Program-made: the position numbers and the translations under genes
Notes under the pieces: model-generated
Told to the model about the DNA's origin: nothing
Database searches by the model: none
What the model saw: the letters and a program-made list of their open reading frames with translations, nothing else
Assembly: GCF_003143855.1 (NCBI RefSeq)
Contig: NZ_QFRK01000001.1
Location: forward strand, 62,938-126,937
DNA: 64,000 nt
Direction of reading: 5' to 3'
Source of the DNA: Streptomyces sp. NWU339
GTDB lineage: Bacteria; Actinomycetota; Actinomycetes; Streptomycetales; Streptomycetaceae
Shown here: one piece after another, positions 35,468-55,792 of the stretch
Layout of the letters: the number at the start of each line of letters is the position of its first letter
Position numbering within the stretch: position 1 is the stretch's first letter

Positions 35468-35554
35468 GGAGAGGTACCCGAAGCGGCCCAACGGGGTTCC
35501 GAGGCAACTCGGATCGGGTGAAAGCCTTCGCAGGTTCGAATCCTGCCCTCTCCG
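35468..35554 (+). ncRNA. tRNA-like RNA 1 (serine-type body, no anticodon loop)
   Basis: 87 nt folding as a type II tRNA without decoding arm. Acceptor GGAGAGG pairs fully with CCTCTCC; discriminator G; no encoded CCA directly after it (reads CACCAC). D arm CCC/GGG with A14 and G18G19; T arm GCAGG-TTCGAAT-CCTGC is canonical; variable arm GGGT-GAAA-GCCT is a 4-bp stem. Where the anticodon arm should be there is UCCGAG-GCAA-CUCGGA, a 6-bp stem with a GNRA tetraloop, so no anticodon exists. G1-C, G2-C, A3-U, G4-C and C11-G are the nucleotides seryl-tRNA synthetase reads, and that enzyme ignores the anticodon. Charging is inference. Confidence 0.75.
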
Positions 35555-35559
35555 CACCA

Positions 35560-35601
35560 CACGCCCCCGGGACTCCGGTGAGCCGGAAGTCCCGGGGCGT
35601 G
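35560..35601 (+). terminator. Strong hairpin after tRNA-like RNA 1
   Basis: Long GC-rich stem (arms 35560-35578 and 35583-35601, one bulged C, 4-base loop) five bases after the tRNA-like gene. Makes the RNA a separate short transcript; also sits at the 3' end of the leftward membrane-protein gene, so it may serve both. Confidence 0.75.
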
Positions 35602-35626
35602 CGCGGGAGAGGCGACCTTCCGGCGG

Positions 35627-36217: not shown

Positions 36218-37618
36218 TCACGGCGTACGACGGGCCTCCCGGTCCAGTCTGTCCAGGTAGGCCCGCAGAAGACCCCTGACCGGGCGCGCGGCGAGCGGTG
36301 CGCGGGGCGCCCGATCGCGATGCCAGGGGTAGGCGCGGGGACCGCGGGCCGTCGTGGAGGGCTCCGCGATCGACTCCGCCACGTACGAACCGTGGGCCAC
36401 CGACATGGCCAGACCGTGACCGCAGCAGCCGCCGATGTACCAGAGATCCGGGTGCCCCCCCACGTTCCCGACCACGGGAAGGTCGTCCAGGGTCATGCCG
36501 ATCTGCCCCGACCAGCGGTGGCTGACCGGTACCTCGGCGAGGCGGGGGTGCAGCAACCGCAGCCGCTCCTCCAGCCAGTTCCAGGTGGCGGTGCGCAGCG
36601 CGGCGGCCCGGTCGGGGCTCAGCCCCGGCAGGTGGACGGCCCGGCCGCCGCCCAGCACCAGGCGCCCGTCCTCGGTGAGACGGAAGTACGGCGCCAGGGA
36701 CATGCTGTTCACGACGGCGGTTGCGGTGGCGCCGCCCAGCGCCTCGCGCGCCTCCGCGTCGAGCGGGCCGGTGGCGACGGCGTGCACCTGGAGGGGCAGG
36801 ACCGTGCCCACGGGAAGCCCGAGCCGTCCGGCCGCCGCGTTGACGGCCAGGACGGTCTTGCGCGCCCGGAGCGTACCGCTGGGGAAGAGCAGCTCGCTGA
36901 CGGCGGCGCCGCTGCCGGGACGCAGACCGCGCAGCGGGCTGTCGTCGTGGAAACGGACACCCTTCGCAGCGCAGGCGGCCACCAGCGTGCCGCTCAGCGC
37001 GGTGGGGTCGAGGGTGGCGGCGGAGCGGTAGAGCAAACCGGCGTGGTACGGCACGTCGACGCGCTCGCGGATGGCGGCGGCCGACAGGACGGGGACGTCC
37101 AGGCCCAAGGCCCGGTAGGTCTCCGCCTGCCGGGCGAGGGAGGCCAGACCGGCCGCGCTGCGGGTCGCCACGATCTGTTCCCCGGTCCGCAGTCCGCACG
37201 ATGTGCCCAACTCACCGGCGAGCGTGATCACCCGCTCCACGGCGGTGACGGAGGCCAGATGCATGCGCCGCGCCGTGGACGGGCCGAAACGGCGGGCGGC
37301 CCGGTCGATGGACGGGCCGACCCGGGGTCCGAGGAGCCCGGTGCCCCGGCCGCTGGCGCCGGCTGCGGGATGCCGGGCGTCCACGACCACGACGTCCAGC
37401 GAGGGATCGCGTTCCACCAGGTGGTACGCGGTGGACAGGCCGGCCAGACCGGCCCCGACCACCGCGACGTCGGCGGTGAGCTCACCGGAGATCCGCGCGG
37501 CGGGCGCGACGGTGGTGAACCTGCCGGGCGCACCGTCCGCGGAGGGCGCCCAGCAGGGCACCCCGCCGGCCGGGGACGTCTCCCCGTCCCCGAGCTCCTC
37601 CCTGACCGGGGCCCTCAT
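36218..37618 (-). CDS. FAD-dependent oxidoreductase (DAO/glycine oxidase-like)
   Basis: 466-residue flavoprotein of the D-amino-acid/glycine oxidase superfamily, oxidising C-N bonds of amines or amino acids. Dinucleotide-binding motif VAVVGAGLAGLSTAYHL near residue 52, ADP-ribose segment VVVVDARHPAAGASGR, and the C-terminal LWYIGGCCGHGLAMS. No signal peptide although the first ~40 residues are unstructured. ATG overlaps the flavin reductase stop (ATGA). In the cluster it may oxidise the amine/hydrazine intermediate; that is inference. Confidence 0.85.
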   Translation of the reverse strand: MRAPVREELGDGETSPAGGVPCWAPSADGAPGRFTTVAPAARISGELTADVAVVGAGLAGLSTAYHLVERDPSLDVVVVDARHPAAGASGRGTGLLGPRVGPSIDRAARRFGPSTARRMHLASVTAVERVITLAGELGTSCGLRTGEQIVATRSAAGLASLARQAETYRALGLDVPVLSAAAIRERVDVPYHAGLLYRSAATLDPTALSGTLVAACAAKGVRFHDDSPLRGLRPGSGAAVSELLFPSGTLRARKTVLAVNAAAGRLGLPVGTVLPLQVHAVATGPLDAEAREALGGATATAVVNSMSLAPYFRLTEDGRLVLGGGRAVHLPGLSPDRAAALRTATWNWLEERLRLLHPRLAEVPVSHRWSGQIGMTLDDLPVVGNVGGHPDLWYIGGCCGHGLAMSVAHGSYVAESIAEPSTTARGPRAYPWHRDRAPRAPLAARPVRGLLRAYLDRLDREARRTP

Positions 37619-38154
37619 CGCACCGCCCCGTCCGCCAGGGCGTGGAATCCGCGGTCGTGCCAGATCAGCGGCCGCCCGTCGGCCAGGTGCAGGGCGGCGA
37701 CCCGCCCGACGACCAGGCAGTGGTCGCCGTAGGGGCGCACCTCCTCCGTCACACAGATCGACCAGGCGAAGGTGTCCGCGAGCACGGGGACGCCGAGCAC
37801 CTCCTCGTACGATTCCCCTGCGAAGCGCTCGGCGGGGGTGGCGCTGGAGAACAGCCGCGCCCGGCCGCGCTGTTCCTCGTTCAGCAGGTGCACCGCGAAG
37901 GCGGAACCCGGCTTGACCGCGGCGAGCGTGCGCGAGGAGTGGGACAGGCAGACGAGCAGCAGCGGCGGGTCGGCCGAGAGGGAGGTGACGGTCGACACGG
38001 TCGTTCCCACCGGCCCGTCGTCCGAGGGCGCCGTGACCACGGCGGTGCCGGAGGCGAGGCGGGCGTAGAAGTCCAGGCAGAGGCCGGTGCCGGGAGCGGG
38101 CATCTGGTCCACTTCCGGCCCGCCGGTACGCGCGTCGGCTATGACGTGCGGCAT
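37615..38154 (-). CDS. Flavin reductase (FMN/FAD, two-component partner)
   Basis: 179-residue flavin reductase of the HpaC/ActVB type: LASGTAVVTAPSDDGPVGTTVSTVTSLSADPPLLLVCL, HLLNEEQRGRARLFSS, and GDHCLVVGRVAALH. ATG at 38154 follows AGGAAGGAG. Would supply reduced flavin to the acyl-CoA-dehydrogenase-fold monooxygenase at 48928-50064, as VlmR does for VlmH in valanimycin biosynthesis. Co-transcribed with the FAD oxidoreductase; separated from the rest of the operon by repeats and a hairpin. Confidence 0.85.
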   Translation of the reverse strand: MPHVIADARTGGPEVDQMPAPGTGLCLDFYARLASGTAVVTAPSDDGPVGTTVSTVTSLSADPPLLLVCLSHSSRTLAAVKPGSAFAVHLLNEEQRGRARLFSSATPAERFAGESYEEVLGVPVLADTFAWSICVTEEVRPYGDHCLVVGRVAALHLADGRPLIWHDRGFHALADGAVR

Positions 38155-38220
38155 GAGGGGGCTCCTTCCTGTCCGGGTTCCTGTTCTCTGTTCGGGTGGA
38201 CCGGCGACATGCTCCGCACT

Positions 38221-38280
38221 GCGGACCGGTCCTCTGTGCCGCGGACCGGCTCTCCCGTCCTGGGGCCGGTTCTCCGTTCC
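38221..38280. repeat. Three tandem 20-bp repeats upstream of flavin reductase
   Basis: Three head-to-tail 20-bp units: GCGGACCGGTCCTCTGTGCC, GCGGACCGGCTCTCCCGTCC, TGGGGCCGGTTCTCCGTTCC. A half unit (GCGGCCCGG) follows at 38281. They lie 67-126 bp upstream of the flavin reductase start and could be regulator sites. Confidence 0.6.
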
Positions 38281-38302
38281 GCGGCCCGGCGAAGACCCGG
38301 CC

Positions 38303-38332
38303 CCCGGGGGCATGGCGTGATCCGCCCCCGGG
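38303..38332. terminator. GC hairpin between SRPBCC and flavin reductase genes
   Basis: CCCGGGGGC (38303-38311) and GCCCCCGGG (38324-38332) form a perfect 9-bp stem with a 12-base loop, 30 bp after the SRPBCC stop. Likely ends the leftward operon from the P450/MMPL side. Confidence 0.6.
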
Positions 38333-44780: not shown

Positions 44781-44867
44781 CGGAGAGCGCAGGATTCGAA
44801 CCTGCGCGGGCTTTCACCCGGTTCGGGTCGCCCCGGAACCCTGTTGGGTCACTTCGGGTACCTCTCC
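44781..44867 (-). ncRNA. tRNA-like RNA 2 (serine-type body, no anticodon loop)
   Basis: 87 nt, identical to RNA 1 at 76 positions. Same acceptor GGAGAGG with CUCUCC (pair 7 is a G-G mismatch), discriminator G, canonical T arm, D arm (G19 is A), variable arm CGGGU-GAAA-GCCCG. The anticodon position holds a hairpin capped by GCGA: relative to RNA 1 the A-U pair inside it is changed to G-C on both sides, and the tetraloop stays GNRA (GCAA to GCGA), while one outer pair becomes C-A. It precedes the methyltransferase gene by 183 bp on the same strand, so it may be cut from the leader of the operon mRNA. Slightly more degenerate than RNA 1. Confidence 0.72.
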
Positions 44868-45011: not shown

Positions 45012-46268
45012 TCAGGTCGCGGTGAGGAGCAGTACGGCATTCTGACCGCCGAATCCGAAGGAGTTGCTGACGGCCACCTCGGCGCGTACGTCGCGCCCGG
45101 CCTTGAACACCACGTCCAGCTCCAGCTCCGGATCCGGGCTCTCCAGGTTGGCGGTCGGCGGGATGCGGCCCTCTTCGAGGGTGAGCGCCGTCGCCACCGC
45201 CTCGATGGCGCCGGCCGCGGCCAGGGAATGGCCCACCACGCCCTTGACGGAGGTGACGGCGGGCCGCTTCCCGAGCACTCGGCGGATCGTCCGGGCCTCG
45301 GCGGCGTCGTTCAGCAACGTCGCGGTGCCGTGCGCGTTGACGTGGTCCACCTCGTCGGCGCCGACCCCGGCGTCGCGCAGTGCGGCGCGCAGGGCGAGTT
45401 CGGCGCCCCGGCCGTCCGGATCGGGGGCGGTCGCGTGGTGCGCGTCGGCGGAGGCGCCGTAACCGCTGACCATGGCCCGGATGTCGGCGCCGCGCGCCCT
45501 GGCGTCCTCGGCCCGCTCCAGGACGAGTACGGCCGCGCCCTCGGCCGGTACGAAGCCGTTCCGGTCGGCGTCGAAGGGCCGGGAGGTGGTGGACAGGTCG
45601 TCGCGGCGGCCGGCCAGGGCCCGCATCTGGCTGAACCCCGTGATCAGCGAGGGAACCAGCGGTGCCTCGGTGCCTCCGGTGATCACCACGTCGCAGACCC
45701 CGCTGCGCAGCAACTCGCGCGCCATGCCCACCGCGGTGGTCCCCGAGGCACAGGCCGTCGCCGTCACCAGACTGGGCCCCAGGGCGCCGAACATCATGGA
45801 GATGTATCCGGCGCCCATGTTGGGCGACAGCATGGGGATGAGCAGCGGGGAGACCTTGCGCGGGCCCCGCTCCAGCAGCACGTGGTGCTGTTTCTCCCAG
45901 GTGGCGGCGCCGCCGATGCCGTTGCCGAGGACCACCCCGACCCGGGTGGCGTCCCAGGAGTCCCGGTCGAGGCCGGAGCTGGTGACGGCCTCGTGCGCGG
46001 CGACCAGCGCGAGCTGACTGCTGCGGTCCAAGCGCCACATCTGCTTGCGGTCGATGAACCCGCTGGGGTCGAAGTCGGTCACGGCGCAGGCGAAGCCGGC
46101 GGGTATGCCGGCGAGCGCGGGCACCCCGGTGGCCGCCGTACCGGCTCCGGCGCGCATCCGCTCCCAGCTCTTCTCGACCCCGACCCCGGCGGCCGTGACC
46201 ATGCCGACCCCGGTGATCGCGGCGTCGAACCGGGTCCGGGCCGGGGCGGTCGTCGGTGGACGGCTCAT
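45012..46268 (-). CDS. Beta-ketoacyl-ACP synthase (FabF-like KAS II)
   Basis: 418-residue condensing enzyme extending an acyl chain with malonyl-ACP. Full Cys-His-His set: Cys173 in TATACASGTTAVG, His313 in NAHGTATLLND, Lys342/His347 in VKGVVGHSLAAAG. SFGFGGQNAVLLL at the C-terminus. ATG overlaps the ACP stop by 4 bp. With its own ACP it probably builds or elongates the aliphatic chain of the product. Confidence 0.92.
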   Translation of the reverse strand: MSRPPTTAPARTRFDAAITGVGMVTAAGVGVEKSWERMRAGAGTAATGVPALAGIPAGFACAVTDFDPSGFIDRKQMWRLDRSSQLALVAAHEAVTSSGLDRDSWDATRVGVVLGNGIGGAATWEKQHHVLLERGPRKVSPLLIPMLSPNMGAGYISMMFGALGPSLVTATACASGTTAVGMARELLRSGVCDVVITGGTEAPLVPSLITGFSQMRALAGRRDDLSTTSRPFDADRNGFVPAEGAAVLVLERAEDARARGADIRAMVSGYGASADAHHATAPDPDGRGAELALRAALRDAGVGADEVDHVNAHGTATLLNDAAEARTIRRVLGKRPAVTSVKGVVGHSLAAAGAIEAVATALTLEEGRIPPTANLESPDPELELDVVFKAGRDVRAEVAVSNSFGFGGQNAVLLLTAT

Positions 46269-46507
46269 CGGACGGTGACCATCTTCTGCGAGATGATCTC
46301 GGCCGCCTGTCCGACGGTCGACTCCGGCTCCATCTCGTTGTCCTCGATCGAGACCTCGAACTCCTCCTGGGCGGCTACGGAGAGTTCCACGAGGGCGAGC
46401 GAGTCGAGTTCGAGGGCGCTGAGGGTGCTGGTCGGCGAGATGCTGTCGGCGTCCAGGCCGAAGGTACTGGTGAGCAGCTCGACCAGGCGCGTGTAGACGT
46501 CTTCCAT
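46265..46507 (-). CDS. Acyl carrier protein
   Basis: 80-residue acidic four-helix ACP. Phosphopantetheine site Ser36 in LELDSLALVEL. Translationally coupled to the ketosynthase. Carries the chain for KAS and, probably, for reductive release by the dehydrogenase at 50192-51874. Confidence 0.9.
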   Translation of the reverse strand: MEDVYTRLVELLTSTFGLDADSISPTSTLSALELDSLALVELSVAAQEEFEVSIEDNEMEPESTVGQAAEIISQKMVTVR

Positions 46508-46572: not shown

Positions 46573-47079
46573 TCAGCTTCCCTGGGGCTGCCGGAGGGCG
46601 GCCGCCGTCCCGCCGGCCGGTTCGGGGCTCGCGGCGGGCGGGGCGTCGAACCGGTCGGCGAAGCGGGCGTACTCGGGATGGACCACCGGTTCGAAGTCCA
46701 GCGCGAAGGGCTTGAGGAAGTTACCGAACAGCGCCCGGTCGCCGAAGAGGTGGATGGGGACGACCAGCAGCGCCCACTCGGGACCCCACAGCCAGATCCA
46801 CGCGAGCACCACGAGCGTCTGGGTGGCCAGGCTGTGCATCACGTTGTACGCGACGTAGTAGCCGCGGTGGATCCGCTTCGTCCTGCTGCGGTGGTAGGCG
46901 ATGGCCCCCGGGATGTAGCCGATGAGGTCGATGTACACGAACAACCCGATCGCCGGGAGCCACCTCACCTCGTCGATGTGGGCGAAGAAGAACACCACGG
47001 CGATCACCAGACCGAGCCCGTACTCCAGCCGGATCAGCCGGTAGGTGGTCCGCGTCTCGAAGAGGTTCTTCCCGTCCAT
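46573..47079 (-). CDS. Integral membrane protein of the cluster
   Basis: 168 residues, about four TM segments: YGLGLVIAVVFFFAHIDEV, LPAIGLFVYIDLIGYIPGAI, THSLATQTLVVLAWIWLW-type helix and LLVVPIHLFGDRALF. Conserved-looking His/Asp within or beside helices (HIDEV, YIDLIGYIPGAIAYHRSR, HRGYYVAYNVMHS, IHLFGD) could bind a metal, as in membrane diiron oxidases, but this is speculative. ATG overlaps the SRPBCC stop (TGATG). Small membrane proteins of this kind occur in azoxy-type clusters; I cannot assign a reaction. Confidence 0.6.
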   Translation of the reverse strand: MDGKNLFETRTTYRLIRLEYGLGLVIAVVFFFAHIDEVRWLPAIGLFVYIDLIGYIPGAIAYHRSRTKRIHRGYYVAYNVMHSLATQTLVVLAWIWLWGPEWALLVVPIHLFGDRALFGNFLKPFALDFEPVVHPEYARFADRFDAPPAASPEPAGGTAAALRQPQGS

Positions 47080-47594
47080 CAGCGCGTTCCGGACGCGGCC
47101 GTGACGGGCCCGGCCGTGACCTCGGCGACGGCACGGGCGACCGCCTCGTCGCCGACCACGGCGGCATTGCCCGCGAAGAGGCTGATGACCACCCGGGCGA
47201 TGGTCTCCTTGAAGACCCGCTCCGCGACCGGGTCGAGGATGCCCGCGAGGCTGGGGATGCCGAAGTCGAACTCGGCGCTGAAGTCGACCAGGCAGCCCGT
47301 GCCGTCCGCGGTGAGCCGCCACACGCCGGCGAACTCGGCGAAGTCACCGTCGGTCTGCTCGAAGGTGATGGTCAGGGTTTCGCGGTCGAACCGGTCGGTC
47401 TCGCTCCAACTCAGAATGCCGTTGCGGAAGTAGACGTCCCAGTCGCTGACCTCCTCGCCGTGGGACTCCCGGCGGGAGGTCACGGAGCGGATGACGTCGG
47501 TCAGTTCGGGGTACCGGCTGAAGGCGCCGACCCGCTCGAACGCCGCCGCGGCGTCGATGTCGTGTACGCGGATGATCACTCGTACGCTACGCAT
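47079..47594 (-). CDS. SRPBCC-family protein
   Basis: 171-residue ligand-binding/cyclase-like fold: HDIDAAAAFERVGAFSRYPELTDVIRSVT, DWDVYFRNGILSWSETDRFD, and GCLVDFSAEFDFGIPSLAGILDPVAERVFKETIARVV. Overlaps the aminotransferase by 8 bp and the membrane gene by 3. Second SRPBCC of the cluster; possibly a partner of the ACP-bound chain. Confidence 0.8.
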   Translation of the reverse strand: MRSVRVIIRVHDIDAAAAFERVGAFSRYPELTDVIRSVTSRRESHGEEVSDWDVYFRNGILSWSETDRFDRETLTITFEQTDGDFAEFAGVWRLTADGTGCLVDFSAEFDFGIPSLAGILDPVAERVFKETIARVVISLFAGNAAVVGDEAVARAVAEVTAGPVTAASGTR

Positions 47595-48915
47595 GGATGG
47601 TGCCGCCTTCCGCAGTGGGTGCGTACCGGGCGCTCTGCGCGCGGCACGCGCGGTCGACCGCCTCGTAGAAGAAGTCCAGGTCGCTCCTGGTCAGCACCGC
47701 GGGAGGGGTGAAGCGCAGGACCAGGTGCGAGTTGAGCGAGTGGTTGGCGATGACGCCGTTCATGATCAGCTCGATGAGCAGGTCGCCCGCCGGCCCGGGG
47801 TCGGTGAACTCGATCCCCAGCAGCAGCCCCCGGCCCCGGACCTCGCGCACGGCGGCGCCGTAGTGCGAGCGGACGATACGGTCCAGCTCCGGCAGGATCT
47901 CGGCGCCCAGGTCGCGGGAGCGGGCCACGAGGTCGTCCTCGTGCATCGCCGCGAGCGACCCGCGTACGGCGGCCATCGCCAGCGGCGCGCCCGAGAACGT
48001 GGAGGTGTGCAGGTACGGGTCCCGGTCGAAGGCGCCGAACGCCTCGCGGGTGGCGACGACGGCCGACACCGGGACGACGCCCCCGCTCAGCCCCTTGCCG
48101 ACCAGTAGCACGTCGGGGGAGACACCCTCGCGGTCCGCGCCCCACCAGGTGCCGAGCCGACCGAGACCGGTCTGGATCTCGTCCAGGACGAGGAGGGCCC
48201 CGTACCGGTCGCACAGGTCTCGTACCGCGCGCAGATAGCCCGCCGGGGGGATCACCACGCCGGCCTCGCCCTGCACCGGCTCGATGAAGACGCACGCTTC
48301 GCCGGGGGCCGCCGCCAGGAGCGGTTCGAGGGCTGCGGCGTCACCGTACGGGACGTGGGCGGTCTCGGGGAGCAGCGGCCGGAACGGCTCCTGGAAGACG
48401 TTCTTGCCGGTGAGGCTGAGCGCGCCCATGGTCTTGCCGTGGTAGCCGTTCTCCGTGGCGATCAGCCGGTGGCGGCCCCGGGTGCGGGCCAGTTTGACGG
48501 CCGTCTCGACCGCCTCGGCGCCCGAGCCGGCGAAGTGGACCCGCTCGAGCCCGCTCGGCGCGACCGACACCAGGGCGTCGGCGGCCAGCGCGACCTGCGG
48601 TTCGAGGAAGAGCCGGGTGGCCACGGGGTGCGTGGCCAGCTGCTCGGCGACGTGCCGGACGACCGTGGGGTGGCGGGCGCCGGTCAGGAAGACGCCGTAG
48701 CCCCCGCAGTTCAGGAAGTTCCTGTCGTCCGAGGTGGTGACCCAGGCGCCCTGCGAGGCCACCTCGATGTGCCCGCCGAACAGCTCGCCGAGAGTGGCGC
48801 GGCCCTTGCTCAGCCGGGACCGGTACAGCTTGCCCAGCTCCTCCCGCCCGAGGGCGGGCGTGGTGGTGGCGGAGGCCGGGGGCATGGCTGACGGAAGAAA
48901 GGGTGTCGTTGTCAT
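47587..48915 (-). CDS. Class III PLP aminotransferase
   Basis: 442-residue omega-transaminase-like enzyme converting an aldehyde or ketone to a primary amine. Pyridoxal Lys274 in LLVGKGLSGGVVP, Asp245 in LLVLDEIQTGLGR, phosphate region GSGAEAVETAVKLAR. With the upstream acyl reductase it would give a fatty amine, the substrate for N-hydroxylation. Start ATG 48915. Tightly linked to the monooxygenase-like gene. Confidence 0.9.
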   Translation of the reverse strand: MTTTPFLPSAMPPASATTTPALGREELGKLYRSRLSKGRATLGELFGGHIEVASQGAWVTTSDDRNFLNCGGYGVFLTGARHPTVVRHVAEQLATHPVATRLFLEPQVALAADALVSVAPSGLERVHFAGSGAEAVETAVKLARTRGRHRLIATENGYHGKTMGALSLTGKNVFQEPFRPLLPETAHVPYGDAAALEPLLAAAPGEACVFIEPVQGEAGVVIPPAGYLRAVRDLCDRYGALLVLDEIQTGLGRLGTWWGADREGVSPDVLLVGKGLSGGVVPVSAVVATREAFGAFDRDPYLHTSTFSGAPLAMAAVRGSLAAMHEDDLVARSRDLGAEILPELDRIVRSHYGAAVREVRGRGLLLGIEFTDPGPAGDLLIELIMNGVIANHSLNSHLVLRFTPPAVLTRSDLDFFYEAVDRACRAQSARYAPTAEGGTIHA

Positions 48916-48927
48916 GACGCTCCCTCG

Positions 48928-50064
48928 TCAGGTCAGACGCAGCGGGTCGCCCGCGACGTGGTCGAGGAACGGCCGGGTGAAGCTCGCCCGCGACGGCGGG
49001 TGGAAGGAGAGACCGTGGGCGGCGCCGGCCAGGTAGGACACGTCGGAGTCGGACATGAAGGCCGTACCGCCGAGCAGTTCGACGGCCTGGCACAGCGAGT
49101 CGCCCAGCGCGTCCTGGACGGCGTAGCGGGCGACGAGCGTGTCGGCTAGGTCCTTGTTGCCGGTGTCGCCGTCCCTGATCATGCGCGCGGTGCCCGCCAG
49201 CAGCAGGGCGGCCGTCTCCAGCCGGATGAGCACCCGGGCACGGTCGGAGTCGCTGCCCCGGCCGCCGTCGACGACCCGTTCGACCAGTCCGCTGACGATA
49301 CCGAGGTAGCAGGCGGAGATGAGCAGTTCGAACCAGATCAGCCCGACGGTCTGGAGGCTGTCCAGGTTCCCGGCGTCGCCCGGCTCGGTGCGCATGACGA
49401 GCTGCTCGTCGACGAAGACGTCCGTGAGCCTCACCTCGTCGCTCTCGGCGCCCGCGAGGGTGCGGCTTCCCCAGAACGGGTGGACGGTGATCCCCTCGGT
49501 GTTCCGGGGGATCAGGAGCACCGCCGTCCTCGGCTCACCGCCGTCGGTGGGCAGCACCACGCTCGCGGTGAGCAGGTCCATCGAGTGCGACAGGCTGCAC
49601 GGCTTCTTGGCACCGTTGATCACATAGCCGCCGTCGGCCTTCGTCGCCGTCATCATCGGCGAGAGGATGCCCCGGCCCGGTCGGCCCTCGGCGAAGCCGG
49701 AGGCCACCAGCAGGCGCTGCTCGGCGATCCCCTCGAGCAGCGCCCACTCCATGCCGCTGCTCTGGATGGACTCGGCGAGGGTGAACAGGGTCGCGACCGA
49801 GAAGTGGTGCATCGTCGTGGCGATCGCCAGGGACGGCGCCTTGGAGGCCAGGGCCTGTACGACGGCGAGGGCCTGGACCGGGTCGGCACCGGCCCCGCCG
49901 TAGGTCTTGGGGATCACGAGGCCGGGGCCGCCGGTCTCGCGGAAGTGGTCGAGGGCCGGGTTCCTCGGTGCTTCCAGCGCTTCCAGTGGCATGCCGGAGA
50001 GCAGGTCGAGCAGACCGGGCAGGAATGAATCACATGTCGCGCGTGCGGCTTCCAACGAGCGCAT
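48928..50064 (-). CDS. Acyl-CoA-dehydrogenase-fold flavoprotein, candidate amine N-hydroxylase
   Basis: 378-residue protein with the ACAD fold but atypical motifs: PGLVIPKTYGGAGADPVQAL, HHFSVATLF, ASGFAEGRPGRGILSPMM, INGAKKPCSLSHSMDLLTASVV. The catalytic Glu and the E-P-x-A-G-S-D block of true dehydrogenases are absent (reads FAEGRPGR), as in flavin-dependent N-hydroxylases such as VlmH that use reduced FAD from a partner reductase. Here the reductase is at 37615-38154. Chemistry is inferred from context. Confidence 0.75.
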   Translation of the reverse strand: MRSLEAARATCDSFLPGLLDLLSGMPLEALEAPRNPALDHFRETGGPGLVIPKTYGGAGADPVQALAVVQALASKAPSLAIATTMHHFSVATLFTLAESIQSSGMEWALLEGIAEQRLLVASGFAEGRPGRGILSPMMTATKADGGYVINGAKKPCSLSHSMDLLTASVVLPTDGGEPRTAVLLIPRNTEGITVHPFWGSRTLAGAESDEVRLTDVFVDEQLVMRTEPGDAGNLDSLQTVGLIWFELLISACYLGIVSGLVERVVDGGRGSDSDRARVLIRLETAALLLAGTARMIRDGDTGNKDLADTLVARYAVQDALGDSLCQAVELLGGTAFMSDSDVSYLAGAAHGLSFHPPSRASFTRPFLDHVAGDPLRLT

Positions 50065-50191: not shown

Positions 50192-51874
50192 TCAGCGTCC
50201 GGTGGCGGCCTTCAGGGCCTTCCAGGCGCCGAACACCGCTTCGGAGGGCCGGACGCCGGTGGCGACGCTCACACCCTGGACGTGGGAGGTACGCAGGATC
50301 GGGTAGTTGGCCTCGCCGAACACACCCCCGGTGAGTCCGGTCCCGCCGTGGGTCGGCAGGTAGGGCAGGAACCCGATGTGGGAGTCGTTCACCTTGAGCA
50401 GTCCGCCCTGGGTGATCCTGGTGACGATCCGGTCGACCACCTCGGGGTCCCGGGCCCACGCGGAGTTCCGCAGTCCGTAGGCGTTGCCGTTGACGAAGTC
50501 GATGAACCGGTCCAGCAGGACCTCGTCGGGGGCGGGCTCGGCCACGATCACCGGAAGCAGTGGGAAGAAGGTCTCCTCGCGGACGGCCTGGACCTCATGG
50601 GCCTTCGCCAGGCCCTGGACCCGCACGACGGTGGGCTCGAGGAAGATGCCGGCCGTGTCGCGGGTCCCGTCCTCCTGGATCGCGTGTCCGCCGCACACCA
50701 GCTCCGCGCCGTGGTCGACGGCGTCGCGCAGGCACGAGAAGAACTTCTCGTTGCGCAGCACCGGGGTGAGCAGGACGCCCTCCTGCGAAGACGGGCCGGG
50801 CCTGATCCGCGAGGCCTTCTCCGCCAGCAGGGCGACCAGGTCGTCGGCGATGTCCGGGTGGGCCACGACCTGGTTGGGGATCATGCAGAGCTGGCCGGAG
50901 CCGTAGAAGCTCTCCGTGATGGCCTCGGCAGCCAGGTCCAGGTCGGCGTCCTTCCACACCAGCACGATGTCGTTGCCGGCCAGTTCGAGGATCGGCTTCT
51001 TGCCCGCCGCGATGCAGCGCTCCTGGAAGCGCATCCCGTTCTCGCTGCTGCCGAAGTACATGATGTCGTCGACGAGCGGGCTCTCCAGCCAGGCATCCAG
51101 CATCGGCGCCGGGTCGCCGCACACCACGCCGAGGGTGCCGGGGGGAGCGTCCAGCTCCGCCAGGACCGGGGCCACGACCTCCTGGAGCACGTACATCGCT
51201 CCCAGCGGGGCGCTGCGGGGCGCCCGTACGACGAGGGCGTTGCCCGCCATGATCGAGGTCACGCCGAGCAGCGCGCTGGAGAGCGGCGCGTTCTGCGGGG
51301 GGTTGAGGCAGACCACACCGTCGGGACGACGGCGAACGGAGATCTGCCGCTCCCCTTGTCGGAACTCCTGGAGCATCTGGCTCCGGTAGAAGCCCAGCGA
51401 CTCGGGTCCGAAGACCTCCAGGGCCCCGGACACCTGCCAGCGGGCCAGTGCCAGCGGGTGCCCCTCCCGTACGAGAACCTCGGTGATCCGGTCGGCCTGC
51501 TCGACGAGCCGGCGGTACACCAGGGTGCCGAACTGCTCGATCCGGGTCTCCGGGGGGAACGCGGCCCAGACCGGGGCGGCCGCTGCCGCCGCTTCCAAGG
51601 CCAGGTCCGTGGTCCGGCGGTCGGCCCGCGCGACCCGGGCGACGATGGTGGCCGGCAGATTGTCGGGGGGAATGGTTCCGCTCTCCAGCTTCCGCTTCAG
51701 GGCGAGCGTGGAAAACGCGTCGTCGAGCAGGGCGTCCGAGTCGACCACGTATACCCAGGACCCGCTCGGGACGTTCTTTCCCTCGATGAGGGAAAGGTAG
51801 GTGGGGACTTCCGAACGAGACGCTCCGGAATCTTCTTCTCCTGACACTGAAGGCGTTGTGATATCGCTGCTCAC
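50192..51874 (-). CDS. Aldehyde-dehydrogenase-superfamily acyl reductase
   Basis: 560-residue NAD(P) enzyme. GTG at 51874 follows GGAGGGG. Catalytic Cys330 in GSGQLCMIPNQVV and general base Glu297 in ILELAGNDIVLV, plus NPPQNAPLSSALLG and GSSENGMRF; length and the acyl-binding region fit long-chain acyl-CoA/ACP reductase or succinate-semialdehyde-like group. First gene of the main biosynthetic transcript, with a four-repeat SARP promoter directly upstream. Reductive release of the chain as aldehyde, then amination by the transaminase, is the likely order. Confidence 0.82.
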   Translation of the reverse strand: MSSDITTPSVSGEEDSGASRSEVPTYLSLIEGKNVPSGSWVYVVDSDALLDDAFSTLALKRKLESGTIPPDNLPATIVARVARADRRTTDLALEAAAAAAPVWAAFPPETRIEQFGTLVYRRLVEQADRITEVLVREGHPLALARWQVSGALEVFGPESLGFYRSQMLQEFRQGERQISVRRRPDGVVCLNPPQNAPLSSALLGVTSIMAGNALVVRAPRSAPLGAMYVLQEVVAPVLAELDAPPGTLGVVCGDPAPMLDAWLESPLVDDIMYFGSSENGMRFQERCIAAGKKPILELAGNDIVLVWKDADLDLAAEAITESFYGSGQLCMIPNQVVAHPDIADDLVALLAEKASRIRPGPSSQEGVLLTPVLRNEKFFSCLRDAVDHGAELVCGGHAIQEDGTRDTAGIFLEPTVVRVQGLAKAHEVQAVREETFFPLLPVIVAEPAPDEVLLDRFIDFVNGNAYGLRNSAWARDPEVVDRIVTRITQGGLLKVNDSHIGFLPYLPTHGGTGLTGGVFGEANYPILRTSHVQGVSVATGVRPSEAVFGAWKALKAATGR

Positions 51875-51941
51875 GAAGCCCCTCCGCTCTCCATTTCCCA
51901 TCCACTGACGGGAAAGTTCGCATTTCCAAGTGCTGCTACGA

Positions 51942-51995
51942 CCATTACACGCCTCCCTGAGAATCCCCGGAGACGGCGCTGAGACGGCGCTGAGA
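51942..51995 (-). promoter_or_regulatory. Four-repeat SARP promoter of main biosynthetic operon
   Basis: On the minus strand four heptamers with 11-bp pitch: TCTCAGC (51995), TCTCAGC (51984), TCTCCGG (51973), TCTCAGG (51962), then 8 bp and TAATGG (51947-51942). About 60 bp from there to the GTG. Same heptamer as at the two tRNA-like genes. It lies in the divergent region and may also influence the rightward transferase gene. Confidence 0.75.
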
Positions 51996-52111: not shown

Positions 52112-53119
52112 ATGACGACGCGCAGCGGAGAGATATCCGACGAAGAAGTGCTCGAAGTCCTGGAAAGGCTCCGCAAGGACTGTGACAATCCCAGCGGCTT
52201 CCTCGCGCTCAACTCCGGTAACGCGTACTTCACCGATCCGGCGACGAACGGGGTCATCGCCTATCGCGAGGCGGGCTCGTACCTGCTCCAGTTCGGCGGT
52301 GTCCACGCCCCGCCGGACCAGCAGGAGACGCTGCTGCGGTCCTTCCTCGGCGACGCGTGCCGGCGGCGCCGCAAGGTGGTCGCCGTACAGGTCCTCACCC
52401 CGGACGTCGACCTCTATGTCCGGTGCGGTTTCACGGTCAACCAGGTCGGCTCGTCGTATTCGGTGCACCTGCCGGACTTCACCCTGCGCGGCACTCGCTT
52501 CATGAAGCTCCGCAACAAGATCTCACGGGCGCGGCGCAGCGGTCTGGAGGTGACGGAGGTCCCGTACGAGGAGTGCGCGGCGGAGGTCGCCGCCATCGAC
52601 GGCGCCTGGTTGCGGAGCAAGGGCCGGCATGCCAAGGAGATCGAGTTCTTGGTCGGCGAACTGGGCGGGCCGGTGCAGCACGCGCGCCGGCTGATGCTGG
52701 GCCGGCTGGGGGGCAAGGCCATCGCCTACATCTCGTACTCGCCCGCGTACGGTTCGCGTTCCGGGTGGTTGCACGACCTCAGCCGCCGGCTCCCGGAGGC
52801 GCCCCCCGGCGTGATGGAGGCCATCAACCTCACCGCGCTGGAGACGTTCCGCAAGGAAGAGGCGGAGTGGCTGCACTTCGGCTTCACCCCGTTCACCGGG
52901 CTGTCCGCCGAGCACGATCCGGCCGGGGCCAGCGCGCTCACCCGTAAGGTCATCGGGCTGCTGGCCGACCACGGGGACAAGGTCTATCCCGCGGCCAGCC
53001 AGCTCGCCTACAAGGAGAAGTGGGGCCCACAGCTCGTGCATCCCGAGTACATGGCCTTCCACGGTCGGGCGAGGCTGGGAGCCATCTGGCAGATCCTGCG
53101 GGTCACGAAATCGGTGTGA
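52112..53119 (+). CDS. MprF/VlmA-like aminoacyl-tRNA-dependent transferase (DUF2156 fold)
   Basis: 335-residue dual-GNAT protein resembling the C-terminal domain of phosphatidylglycerol lysyltransferase and the seryl-tRNA:hydroxylamine transferase VlmA. Blocks: FLALNSGNAYFTDPATNGVIAYREAGSYLLQFGGV, LYVRCGFTVNQVGSSYSVHLPDFTLRGTRFMKLRNKISRARRSGLEV, YISYSPAYGSRSGWLHDLSRR, EAINLTALETFRKEEAEWLHFGFTPF. Would take an aminoacyl group from a tRNA body and join it to the N-oxygenated amine. Directly beside the SARP promoter. The two tRNA-like genes are obvious candidate donors. Confidence 0.78.
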   Translation: MTTRSGEISDEEVLEVLERLRKDCDNPSGFLALNSGNAYFTDPATNGVIAYREAGSYLLQFGGVHAPPDQQETLLRSFLGDACRRRRKVVAVQVLTPDVDLYVRCGFTVNQVGSSYSVHLPDFTLRGTRFMKLRNKISRARRSGLEVTEVPYEECAAEVAAIDGAWLRSKGRHAKEIEFLVGELGGPVQHARRLMLGRLGGKAIAYISYSPAYGSRSGWLHDLSRRLPEAPPGVMEAINLTALETFRKEEAEWLHFGFTPFTGLSAEHDPAGASALTRKVIGLLADHGDKVYPAASQLAYKEKWGPQLVHPEYMAFHGRARLGAIWQILRVTKSV

Positions 53120-53131
53120 CCCTTCCGCCTC

Positions 53132-53902
53132 TCAGTACTGTTTCGTCAGGTGGGGAGCCTGACGCAGGATGTCCTGGAACGTGTCGCGCAGCCCGTTTCC
53201 GGGCTGCAGTCCCAGGTGCTGCGACAGGTATTCGCGGGTGCGGTGATAGGTGTTGAGCGCGTCGGCCTGGCGGCCCGCAAGGTAGAGCGCGGTGATGAGT
53301 TGTTCGCAGAAGCGCTCGTGCAGCGGGTACCTGGCGTGCAGCTGGTCCAGCCCGGGGATGACGGCCCGGGGGTGCTCCAGTCGGAGACGCAGGTCGAAAA
53401 GCCTTTCGTACGCCCCCAACCTGACCTCTTCCAGCTGGGTGTAGGCCACCTGGCAGATCATTCCGTTCCCGGCGTCGATCAATGCCGGGCCGCACCACAG
53501 GGAAACCGCCTCGTTCAGCAGATCGACGGCTTCCTGGGGACTGCTGGCGCTGGTCGCGTCGGCGCGGAAGACCAGCTGGAACAGCCGGGAGGCGTCGATG
53601 TTCTCCTCGGGCAGATCCAGGATGTATCCGGTCGGTGAAGTCTGGATGACATTCCGCAGTGTGGCCTTTCCCCCGTGCGCGACCAATACCCGCCGTAGCC
53701 GGGCAATGTGACCGTGCAGTGAATTTTTGGCGCTGTTCGGAGGCTCTTCGCCCCACAATTCGTCGATGAGCTCATCCCGTGAAACGGAGCGTCCCACCGA
53801 CAGGGAGAGAGCCGCCAGGATCGAGCGTAACTTCTCCCCGGGTACCCGGATCCGAACCCCGTCGTCGATGACTTCCATCGGTCCGAGAAGGTTAATCTTC
53901 AA
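53132..53902 (-). CDS. SARP-family transcriptional activator
   Basis: 256-residue pathway activator: N-terminal OmpR-type winged helix (MKINLLGPMEVIDDGVRIRVPGEKLRSILAALSLS...RDELIDELWGEEPPNSAKNSLHGHIARLRRVL) and bacterial transcriptional activator domain (residues ~100-245, LWCGPALIDAGN...RLGAYERLFDLRLRLEHPRAVIPGLDQL). TTG start preceded by GGGGGAAA. Convergent with the transferase gene. SARPs bind 11-bp-spaced heptamers, precisely the pattern at three cluster promoters; VlmI of the valanimycin cluster is also a SARP. Confidence 0.92.
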   Translation of the reverse strand: MKINLLGPMEVIDDGVRIRVPGEKLRSILAALSLSVGRSVSRDELIDELWGEEPPNSAKNSLHGHIARLRRVLVAHGGKATLRNVIQTSPTGYILDLPEENIDASRLFQLVFRADATSASSPQEAVDLLNEAVSLWCGPALIDAGNGMICQVAYTQLEEVRLGAYERLFDLRLRLEHPRAVIPGLDQLHARYPLHERFCEQLITALYLAGRQADALNTYHRTREYLSQHLGLQPGNGLRDTFQDILRQAPHLTKQY

Positions 53903-54640: not shown

Positions 54641-54785
54641 GTGTGAGTGAACCGTTCCGGGTTCGGTAGAGATCTCAGAGGTTGGCTGTGACCTGACCTG
54701 ACTCTATGAGGGCCGGGCCCCTTCTCTGCTCAGCCCGGCGATGCCTACCGTCCGGGTATGTACGGGCTCGGGAAGGAGGCCCTCG

Positions 54786-55792
54786 ATGTCTGTCTACGTC
54801 GGTATCGACGTGCACCGCAAGCGGTCGCAGATCGCCGTGGTGGATCGCGATGGTGCGGTGCAGGTCAACCGGAATGTGCCCAACGGGGTCAAGACGGTGC
54901 TGTCGGTGATCGGGGATCTGCCGATCGGCGCCCCGGTCGCGTTCGAGGCCGCCTACGGCTGGGGCCGGCTGGTTCAGCTGCTGGAGGACTACGGCTTCGA
55001 GCCGCACCTGGTGCATCCGCTGCGCTGCAAGGCGATCGCCTCCGCACGGCTGAAGAACGACAAGGTCGACGCCGCGACCCTGGCCCAGCTGCTGCGGGCC
55101 GACCTGCTGCCGGAGGCCTGGATCGCCCCGCTGGACGTGCGGCAGCGGCGGGCCCTGCTGCGGCATTGCTGCCGGCTGGTGCGGCTGCGGACCCGGCTGC
55201 GCAACCGGGTCCACGCCGTCCTGGCGGACCACGGCCGCGACCGGCCGGACGGCTGCTTCACCGCCCCGGGCCGGCCTGGCTGGAGGGCCTGGATCTGCCG
55301 GACGCCTCCCGCCGCGTGGTCGAGGACCTGCTGGTCCTGATGGACGCCCTCAAGGAGCCGATCGACGCGCTCGACCGGCAGCTGCTCGCGCAGGCGCGGG
55401 GCGATCCGCGCATCCAGGCGCTCACCCGGCTGACGGGGGTCGGCGCGCTCACCGCCCTGGTCATCGTGGCCGAGGTCGGGGACGCCACCCGCTTCCCCTC
55501 CGCGCGCAAGCTCACCGCCTGGGCCGGGCTGACGCCCACCGTCCACGGGTCGGATCGGACCGTGCGGCACGGGCACATCTCCAAGCAGGGCTCGCCCTGG
55601 CTGCGGTGGATCTTGTGCGAGGCCGCGCAGAGCGCGAAGCGTTCCCCGGAATTCGCCCCCGCCTACCAGCGCCTCGCCCACCGCCGCGGCAAGAAGATCG
55701 CCACCACCGCCATCGCCCGCCGTCTGCTGGCTCGCGCCCACCACCTGCTGCGCGCCGTCCAGGAACAACTGGACCAGCAGGGGGCCCGATGA
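54786..55792 (+). pseudogene. IS110-family DEDD transposase, one frameshift
   Basis: IS110-type recombinase: YVGIDVHRKRSQIAVVD (first Asp), VAFEAAYGWGRLV (Glu), ARLKNDKVDAATLAQLL (Asp pair), and the transposase-20 part RIQALTRLTGVGALTALVIVAEVG...LTAWAGLTPTVHGS...ISKQGSPWLRWILCEAA with the catalytic Ser. A missing base near 55271-55275, in the GGCCGG tract, breaks LADHGRD...GR from LDLPDASRRVVEDLLVL. Otherwise complete. Confidence 0.85.

What the first reader, a model, noticed from the sequence alone, without database searches (positions are those of the whole stretch)
35468..35554. tRNA-like RNA with a GNRA hairpin in place of the anticodon arm
Sequence: 87 nt with 7/7 acceptor pairs, canonical T arm, D arm with G18G19, long variable arm and discriminator G, but the anticodon arm is UCCGAG-GCAA-CUCGGA. 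No seven-base loop, no U33, no anticodon, so it cannot decode. It has its own promoter and terminator. Knowledge: SerRS recognises the acceptor stem (G1-C, G2-C, A3-U, R4-Y, C11-G, all present), variable arm and G73 and ignores the anticodon, so a seryl-charged non-decoding RNA is chemically possible. I know of no described RNA of this type.
Basis: partly seen in the sequence, partly recalled or inferred. Interest (0 to 1): 0.95.

Follow-up and report, generated by a model that had tools for sequence, protein, structure and literature searches.

The report
Anticodon-free tRNA that feeds antibiotic synthesis
This bacterium and dozens of relatives encode a tRNA look-alike with a plain hairpin where the anticodon belongs, so it is predicted not to read the genetic code; it is found in genomes that also carry a VlmA-type enzyme, to which it likely hands serine for making azoxy-type antibiotics.

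Summary
Window 35468-35554(+) holds a full tRNA-Ser-like fold (7-bp acceptor, D, long variable and T arms, G73) with a GNRA hairpin in place of the anticodon arm. A second, partly decayed copy lies at 44781-44867(-). It belongs to a family: 167 distinct full elements collected, from Streptomyces, Kitasatospora, Salinispora, Actinokineospora, Saccharothrix and others, 1-15 copies per genome. Acceptor and T arms hardly vary; the replaced arm is hypervariable yet stays a hairpin. Of 392 congeneric genomes, 51 have the RNA and all 51 have a VlmA-type (PF09924) transferase; by BLAST, 0 of 310 VlmA-free genomes have it. 18 of 18 further RNA-bearing genomes have VlmA. RNA-bearing and RNA-less VlmAs fall in different parts of the VlmA tree. 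A SerRS paralogue lies near 20 of 37 VlmAs of RNA genomes and 0 of 33 others. In the window, a SARP-type repeat array stands before both RNAs and between the ALDH and VlmA genes, nowhere else. Best explanation: a seryl-charged, non-decoding carrier RNA feeding azoxy-type biosynthesis. Charging and transfer are inferred. The literature searches made found no earlier description.

The parts
35468..35554 (+). tRNA-Ser-like RNA, copy 1, GCAA hairpin instead of anticodon arm
   Evidence: 89.7 bits with family model R1
44781..44867 (-). tRNA-Ser-like RNA, copy 2, GCGA hairpin, three mismatches in stems (partly decayed)
   Evidence: 73.5 bits
35382..35409 (+). three TCTCAG/TGTCAG direct repeats at 11-nt spacing, 58 nt before RNA copy 1 (SARP-type operator)
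   Evidence: 4 matches in window, 0.12 expected; spacing rule from PMC10936776
44926..44953 (-). the same three repeats, 58 nt before RNA copy 2
   Evidence: no mismatch
51957..51995 (-). the same repeats between the ALDH and VlmA genes
   Evidence: two overlapping one-mismatch matches
35557..35606 (+). strong hairpin after RNA copy 1, terminator-like
52112..53119 (+). VlmA-type aminoacyl-tRNA-dependent transferase (LPG_synthase_C, PF09924)
   Evidence: PMC9379638 assigns VlmA to PF09924
53132..53902 (-). SARP regulator (BTAD PF03704 + Trans_reg_C PF00486)
50192..51901 (-). aldehyde-dehydrogenase-like enzyme
48928..50064 (-). acyl-CoA-dehydrogenase-fold enzyme, VlmH-like N-hydroxylase (name by recall and neighbourhood)
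47587..48915 (-). class III aminotransferase
46573..47067 (-). small membrane protein, VlmO-like (no Pfam hit; name by recall and neighbourhood)
46265..46507 (-). acyl carrier protein
45012..46268 (-). ketosynthase (FabF type)
37615..38313 (-). flavin reductase, VlmR-like (name by recall and neighbourhood)

Best explanation
These RNAs are a family of tRNA-Ser-like molecules whose anticodon arm is replaced by a hairpin, and they likely act as dedicated serine carriers that a SerRS is predicted to charge and a VlmA-type transferase would discharge onto an aliphatic hydroxylamine in azoxy-type antibiotic synthesis. Shown here: the RNA architecture, its conservation and covariation, its one-sided co-occurrence with VlmA, the matching split of the VlmA tree, the SerRS paralogues near RNA-type VlmAs, and the repeats shared by RNA and pathway upstream regions. 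Inferred: transcription under SARP control, CCA addition, serylation (by housekeeping SerRS in this genome, where no paralogue was found; by the VlmL-like paralogue in many others), exclusion from the ribosome because there is no anticodon, weak EF-Tu binding (A51-U63 in the T stem), and use by VlmA. The gain for the cell would be a private, regulon-controlled pool of seryl-RNA that translation cannot drain and that cannot mistranslate.
For: Architecture: 80 of 80 elements in the first 60 flanks plus window have GGAGAG at the 5' end and G73, neither letter string being demanded by that script (the loci came from BLAST with copy 1). Mean pairwise identity over 54 aligned elements: acceptor 0.98, T arm 0.996, D arm 0.80, replaced arm 0.42 (the T-arm figure is inflated because collection keyed on it). 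Covariation: 97.1% of cells paired, 8 of 22 pairs with two-sided changes, 0 of 500 shuffles as high. Replaced plus variable arm fold better than shuffles, mean z -2.8 over 167 distinct elements. Co-occurrence: 51 of 82 VlmA genomes and 0 of 310 others carry the RNA, Fisher p 1e-42; 18 of 18 further RNA genomes, 11 of them outside Streptomyces, have VlmA. Proximity: 42 of 51 genomes have an RNA within 35 kb of VlmA on one contig, 23 within 500 nt. VlmA tree: 58 RNA-type and 33 RNA-less rows need 3 label changes, 27 in shuffles. SerRS paralogue in 20 of 37 flanks against 0 of 33, SARP 28 of 37 against 3 of 33. Repeats: two or more 11-nt-spaced TCAG before 139 of 153 elements, against 1.06% of random 130-mers. 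Serine identity: the nearest ordinary RNAs opened are tRNA-Ser; [quoted passage not shown]
Against: No RNA, aminoacylation or enzyme data. Published VlmA work used Ser-tRNA (PMC12945691, PMC4052509, passages), and 31 VlmA genomes of the 392 lack the RNA; VlmAs of three of them lie inside the RNA-type clade. So VlmA chemistry does not always need it. No SerRS paralogue in this genome. No VlmB-like gene found in the window. 12 of 167 elements allow a 5-bp/7-nt loop with T33, with unrelated triplets. In 9 of 51 genomes no RNA was found on the contig of VlmA; in G117 (2 contigs) this is not through fragmentation. 14 of 153 elements lack the repeats.
Confidence: 0.8

Rival explanations
1. A regulatory RNA: an uncharged or charged tRNA mimic that senses seryl-tRNA supply or titrates SerRS, VlmA or EF-Tu, rather than donating serine.
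For: Many copies per genome (up to 15), many among genes unrelated to the cluster; hypervariable middle arm.
Against: The aminoacyl-accepting half is the conserved half; strict tie to a seryl-transfer enzyme family and to SerRS paralogues; I saw no other conserved segment in the alignment.
Confidence: 0.1
2. Pseudogenes or attachment-site scars of tRNA-Ser left by integrating elements.
For: tRNA 3' ends are common integration sites (recalled), and this genome has scattered tRNA-Arg 3' ends of that look; copy 2 has three stem mismatches.
Against: Elements are full length with covarying stems, carry a specific upstream repeat array and co-occur with VlmA in all 51 RNA genomes of 392.
Confidence: 0.03
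3. A charged carrier, but for another amino acid or another enzyme of the cluster.
For: Azodyrecin synthesis is proposed to use alanyl-tRNA (PMC9379638), so the pathway is not serine-only.
Against: Position 3-70 is A-U, not the G-U that AlaRS needs (recalled rule); long arm plus G73 fits Ser, while the Leu and Tyr tRNAs of this genome have A73; the nearby synthetase paralogue is SerRS.
Confidence: 0.06

Closest known systems
Non-proteinogenic tRNA-Gly of Staphylococcus aureus (peptidoglycan bridge donors)
   Same: Dedicated aminoacyl donors kept from translation; A51-U63 in the T stem, described there as replacing a strong EF-Tu pair (PMC4052509, passage), is present in 54 of 54 aligned elements here
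   Different: Those keep an anticodon arm (recalled) and have lost G18G19; here the anticodon arm is replaced, G18G19 are kept, and the pathway is a secondary metabolite
Valanimycin system (VlmA with VlmL SerRS and tRNA-Ser, Streptomyces viridifaciens)
   Same: VlmA-type transferase; SerRS paralogue in 20 of 37 RNA-type flanks and SARP in 28 of 37
   Different: No special tRNA is mentioned in the passages read; PMC4052509 states that how Ser-tRNA is diverted from translation is unknown
tmRNA
   Same: tRNA-like acceptor half without anticodon (recalled)
   Different: No mRNA-like part or tag; ARAGORN calls no tmRNA; would work off the ribosome
tRNA-Sec
   Same: Long variable arm, G73, serylated by SerRS (PMC9976931, passage)
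   Different: tRNA-Sec decodes UGA through an anticodon; these RNAs have none

Membership tests
tRNA (decoding) | Acceptor, D, variable and T arms with conserved tertiary bases | tested here: met
tRNA (decoding) | Anticodon arm of 5 bp with a 7-nt loop and U33 | tested here: not met
   Both window copies fail; constrained folds of 69 distinct elements give loops of 3-6 nt in 68 and 7 nt without U33 in 1; 12 of 167 allow a 5-bp (4 or more pairs), 7-nt, T33 register, with unrelated triplets
tRNA-Ser identity | G73 and long variable arm | tested here: met
   G73 in 80 of 80 elements and 34 of 34, where it was not demanded; in the 167 it was part of the filter. Variable-arm stem covaries
tRNA-Ser identity | Charged with serine by SerRS | not testable with these tools
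   needs biochemistry
S. aureus-type non-proteinogenic tRNA | Weak EF-Tu T-stem pair A51-U63 | tested here: met
   54 of 54 aligned (collection keyed on the T arm) and 34 of 34 with a looser pattern; the own four tRNA-Ser have G51-C63
S. aureus-type non-proteinogenic tRNA | Loss of G18G19 | tested here: not met
   G18 invariant, G19 at least 90% in A1
tmRNA | tRNA-like plus tag-coding part | tested here: not met
Aliphatic azoxy (valanimycin-type) cluster | VlmA-type transferase (PF09924) | tested here: met
Aliphatic azoxy (valanimycin-type) cluster | Two-component N-hydroxylase and VlmO-like membrane protein | tested here: inconclusive
   candidates at 48928-50064, 37615-38313 and 46573-47067; never compared with the named Vlm proteins
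Aliphatic azoxy (valanimycin-type) cluster | VlmB-like diiron oxygenase | tested here: not met
   one tblastn query (a relative's VlmB-like protein), none in the window at 1e-4

The most novel reading that the evidence does not exclude
Actinobacteria run a second, private seryl-RNA economy: a multi-copy, SARP-switched regulon of anticodon-less tRNAs, in many species with its own SerRS, that supplies activated serine to antibiotic synthesis in parallel with translation. It would be the first known class of genome-encoded tRNA that has discarded decoding altogether.
Probability: 0.7. Interest if true: 0.96.

Novelty: categorically new. Interest (0 to 1): 0.93.

Why it matters
[quoted passage not shown] These RNAs give a concrete, testable answer. 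They would also separate the two halves of tRNA function in nature: the accepting half kept, the decoding half discarded. They offer a genome-mining marker for VlmA-type clusters, a possible natural orthogonal charging pair (RNA plus SerRS paralogue), and a correction for annotation: ARAGORN labels members as Ala, Thr, Arg, Val, Leu or untyped tRNAs, or misses them.

Tried and rejected
Leads that failed: T-arm matches on contigs C35, C131, C141 and C143 looked like more copies but are partial tRNA-Arg 3' ends. The 56-60 bit class-level hits (26 genomes, 25 loci given) are ordinary tRNA-Ser in the 12 loci opened with ARAGORN; the other 13 were not opened. G047's 62-bit hit reads as an ordinary tRNA-Ser. 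A first shuffle test of the replaced arm used badly cut segments (mean z -1.6, 47 of 82 below -1) and was replaced by the test on positions 29-47, which includes the variable arm. A first operator count used a pattern that missed TCTCAG (class I 9 of 45, class II 90 of 110) and was replaced. GTGAAC at -45 to -27 before 66 of 110 class II elements and 0 of 45 class I is unexplained; it may be leader or promoter. Literature: (open-licence PMC papers only) listed no description of such an RNA; the original valanimycin papers were not readable.

Full report
OBSERVATION. The RNA is at 35468-35554 as described. Its acceptor, D, variable and T arms and G73 are intact, and a 6-bp stem with a GCAA tetraloop stands where the anticodon arm belongs. 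ARAGORN returns 'tRNA-???'; Rfam tRNA 32.7 bits, above gathering, when 1 kb is searched, nothing when the whole window is scanned. A second copy lies at 44781-44867 on the other strand, 88% identical, also with a GNRA loop but with mismatches in acceptor, D stem and hairpin. The genome has ordinary tRNA-Ser genes for CGA, UGA, GGA and GCU, so the RNA is not needed for decoding.

THE FAMILY. A BLAST search with copy 1 in 392 same-genus genomes, the window's own included, gave 55 genomes at E<=1e-4. I dropped four (G040, G047, G211, G333) whose only hits were 31-32 nt; the covariance model finds no family member in them (best 62.2 bits, an ordinary tRNA-Ser). Of the other 51, 50 were confirmed as full elements by pattern or model, G102 by BLAST alone. 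I fetched 60 flanks; with the window they gave 80 elements (two flanks, L059 and L097, hold elements that its pattern missed, found). 54 were aligned (A1). The cloverleaf is supported by covariation: D stem CCCG/CGGG changes to CCCA/UGGG, CUCG/CGAG and UCCG/CGGA; 97.1% of cells pair; 29 cells with two-sided change against 5.2 in shuffles, 0 of 500 shuffles as high; slides of 1-3 columns drop pairing to 38-59%. Shuffles ignore relatedness. The replaced arm's outer three pairs are the weakest helix, 82.4% paired. RNAalifold on the same alignment keeps acceptor, D, variable and T stems and draws no common stem in the replaced arm, as expected for an arm whose sequence and length vary. U8, A14, G15, G18, A21 and C48 are invariant in A1 and G19 nearly so, so the elbow should form.

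THE REPLACED ARM. It is the least conserved part (0.42 mean pairwise identity, against 0.98 for the acceptor and 0.996 for the T arm), but it stays a hairpin. With D, T and acceptor arms fixed, 69 distinct elements give loops of 4 nt (36), 5 (16), 3 (14), 6 (2) and 7 (1). For 167 distinct elements the segment 29-47, variable arm included, folds better than shuffles: mean z -2.8, 136 below -2. Twelve of 167 allow a 5-bp stem with a 7-nt loop and T33, with unrelated triplets. Caution: the 167 were filtered for GGAGAG at one end and AGGTTC...CTCTCCG at the other, so their G73 and T arm are by construction. In one search, where neither the acceptor letters beyond GG nor the discriminator were demanded, 80 of 80 have GGAGAG and G73. 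In one search, with a looser T-arm pattern and almost all elements first located by the covariance model, 34 of 34 family members have GCAGG or GTAGG as T stem and G73, and 33 of 34 have GGAGAGG. The thirty-fifth sequence of that set is the ordinary tRNA-Ser of G047.

THE MODEL. Model R1 gives 73-91 bits to family members and up to 99.7, and at most 49.4 bits to the tRNAs of this genome in that test. In 394 genomes of the class, 5 have hits of 73 bits or more: four of the genus, the window's own included, and G653 of another family. All five have VlmA. The next best, 56-60 bits in 26 genomes, are ordinary tRNA-Ser in the 12 of 25 loci that I opened, so tRNA-Ser is the nearest ordinary relative seen.

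THE LINK TO VlmA. The window gene 52112-53119 is PF09924, the family to which PMC9379638 assigns VlmA (passages). No named VlmA sequence was at hand, so the name rests on that and on the neighbourhood. 82 of the 392 genomes have a homologue at E<=1e-20. All 51 RNA genomes are among them; 0 of 310 VlmA-free genomes has the RNA by BLAST (the model was not run on all 310). Fisher p is 1e-42; genomes are related, so this is not an independent-sample probability. In 42 of 51 an RNA lies within 35 kb of VlmA on one contig, in 23 within 500 nt, where by the listed strands it is divergent from VlmA. Twenty RNA-bearing genomes were then tested, 4 from the class scan and 16 picked from the pattern scan to cover other genera: all 20 have VlmA, and copies per genome run from 1 to 15. 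Two of the 20 (G775, G778) have the same contigs and positions as G257 and G326 and so repeat them; 18 are new, 11 of them outside Streptomyces. In one MAG (G771) the VlmA match is in two pieces. The 31 VlmA genomes without the RNA by BLAST have no family member by the model either (0 of 31, best 52.6 bits, ordinary tRNA-Ser). In a tree of 91 VlmAs, 30 RNA-less rows form one side and 58 RNA plus 3 RNA-less rows the other: 3 label changes, against 27 in shuffles; the root is the midpoint. Rows are labelled by genome, except that the second VlmA of G302 (L147, no RNA within 10 kb) is counted RNA-less; G086 contributes two RNA-less rows; the second VlmA of G516 was not included.

SerRS AND OTHER NEIGHBOURS. 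A SerRS paralogue (PF00587; PF02403 at 28.1 bits, just under its cut-off of 28.2; 40% identical to housekeeping SerRS over 354 residues) gives a tblastn hit in 20 of 37 flanks of VlmA from RNA genomes and in 0 of 33 flanks of RNA-less VlmA; SARP in 28 and 3, the 3 being exactly the RNA-less VlmAs inside the RNA-type clade. The 37 are those of the 58 RNA-type loci for which longer flanks had been fetched. In G653 the paralogue lies 1 kb from the triple RNA. The window genome has one SerRS at E<=1e-15, the housekeeping one, so here that enzyme would charge the RNA. Many RNA copies lie among genes unrelated to the cluster.

OPERATOR. In the window, TCTCAG-N5-TCTCAG-N5-TSTCAG with up to 3 mismatches matches four times in three places: 58 nt before RNA 1 and 58 nt before RNA 2 (both exact), and twice, overlapping, with one mismatch between the ALDH and VlmA genes (expected 0.12). 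SARPs bind direct repeats at 11- or 22-bp spacing (PMC10936776, passages), and a SARP gene lies beside VlmA (53132-53902). Across the family, two or more TCAG at 11-nt spacing lie within 130 nt upstream of 139 of 153 first-of-tandem elements (three or more: 108), against 1.06% (0.57%) of random 130-mers from the same loci. Among elements in loci where the fetched stretch held no VlmA it is 91 of 102; some of these belong to clusters whose VlmA lies beyond the stretch, others are dispersed copies such as L109, L192 and L193. So dispersed copies seem to belong to the same regulon. Elements are not independent of one another by descent.

MECHANISM. Serine identity rests mainly on the variable arm and G73 and does not depend on the anticodon (PMC9976931, passages). 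An RNA that keeps those parts, co-occurs with a transferase family known to take serine from Ser-tRNA (PMC4052509, PMC12945691, PMC11705231, passages), and has lost the decoding arm fits a dedicated carrier. T-stem pair 51-63 is A-U in the family and G-C in all four own tRNA-Ser; A51-U63 is named as a weak EF-Tu pair in S. aureus non-proteinogenic tRNA-Gly. Charging, EF-Tu escape and use by VlmA are inferred.

DOUBTS. There are no expression or biochemical data. VlmA enzymes without the RNA exist, and published VlmA assays used Ser-tRNA, so the RNA is not chemically essential in every system. The window cluster lacks a VlmB-like gene at the threshold used, so its product may not be a classical azoxide.

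NOVELTY. Seven literature searches listed no such RNA; the library holds open-licence papers only. It fails a defining feature of decoding tRNA (anticodon arm) and of tmRNA, and shares one of the two features tested with S. aureus dedicated tRNAs. Functionally it would work most like the latter. I rate the RNA class categorically new; a reader who weighs function over form may prefer 'new variant of a known kind'.

Noticed in passing
L204:7552-7641 (G000:C1:495551-495640, minus): A further type II tRNA-Ser-like gene downstream of housekeeping serS; matches in 76 of 199 same-genus genomes, with serS beside it in 11 of 12 loci checked, the own one included. Most of those read have a Ser(GCU)-like loop; this genome's copy has a 2-nt longer loop and is called Asn by ARAGORN.
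   Followed up: partly
G000 contigs C35, C131, C141, C143 (L009-L013): Scattered tRNA-Arg 3' ends of about 40 nt, six on C35, that look like a chain of attachment sites of integrating elements.
   Followed up: no
L100, L186, L190, L219, L266, L284; S. griseofuscus G774: RNA genes occur as head-to-tail doublets and triplets about 95-160 nt apart; in S. griseofuscus two copies are mirrored at both chromosome ends.
   Followed up: partly
upstream of class II RNAs (those starting GGAGAGGTGCCCGGAG or alike): GTGAAC box 27-45 nt before 66 of 110 class II elements and 0 of 45 class I elements; role unknown.
   Followed up: partly
54758-55792: IS110-family transposase (PF02371) near the SARP gene.
   Followed up: no
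L246, Streptomyces atratus JCM 3386: An RNA lies about 0.3 kb from a VlmA homologue (58% identical) in S. atratus, a species named as elaiomycin source in PMC11705231; whether this is the elaiomycin cluster was not tested.
   Followed up: no
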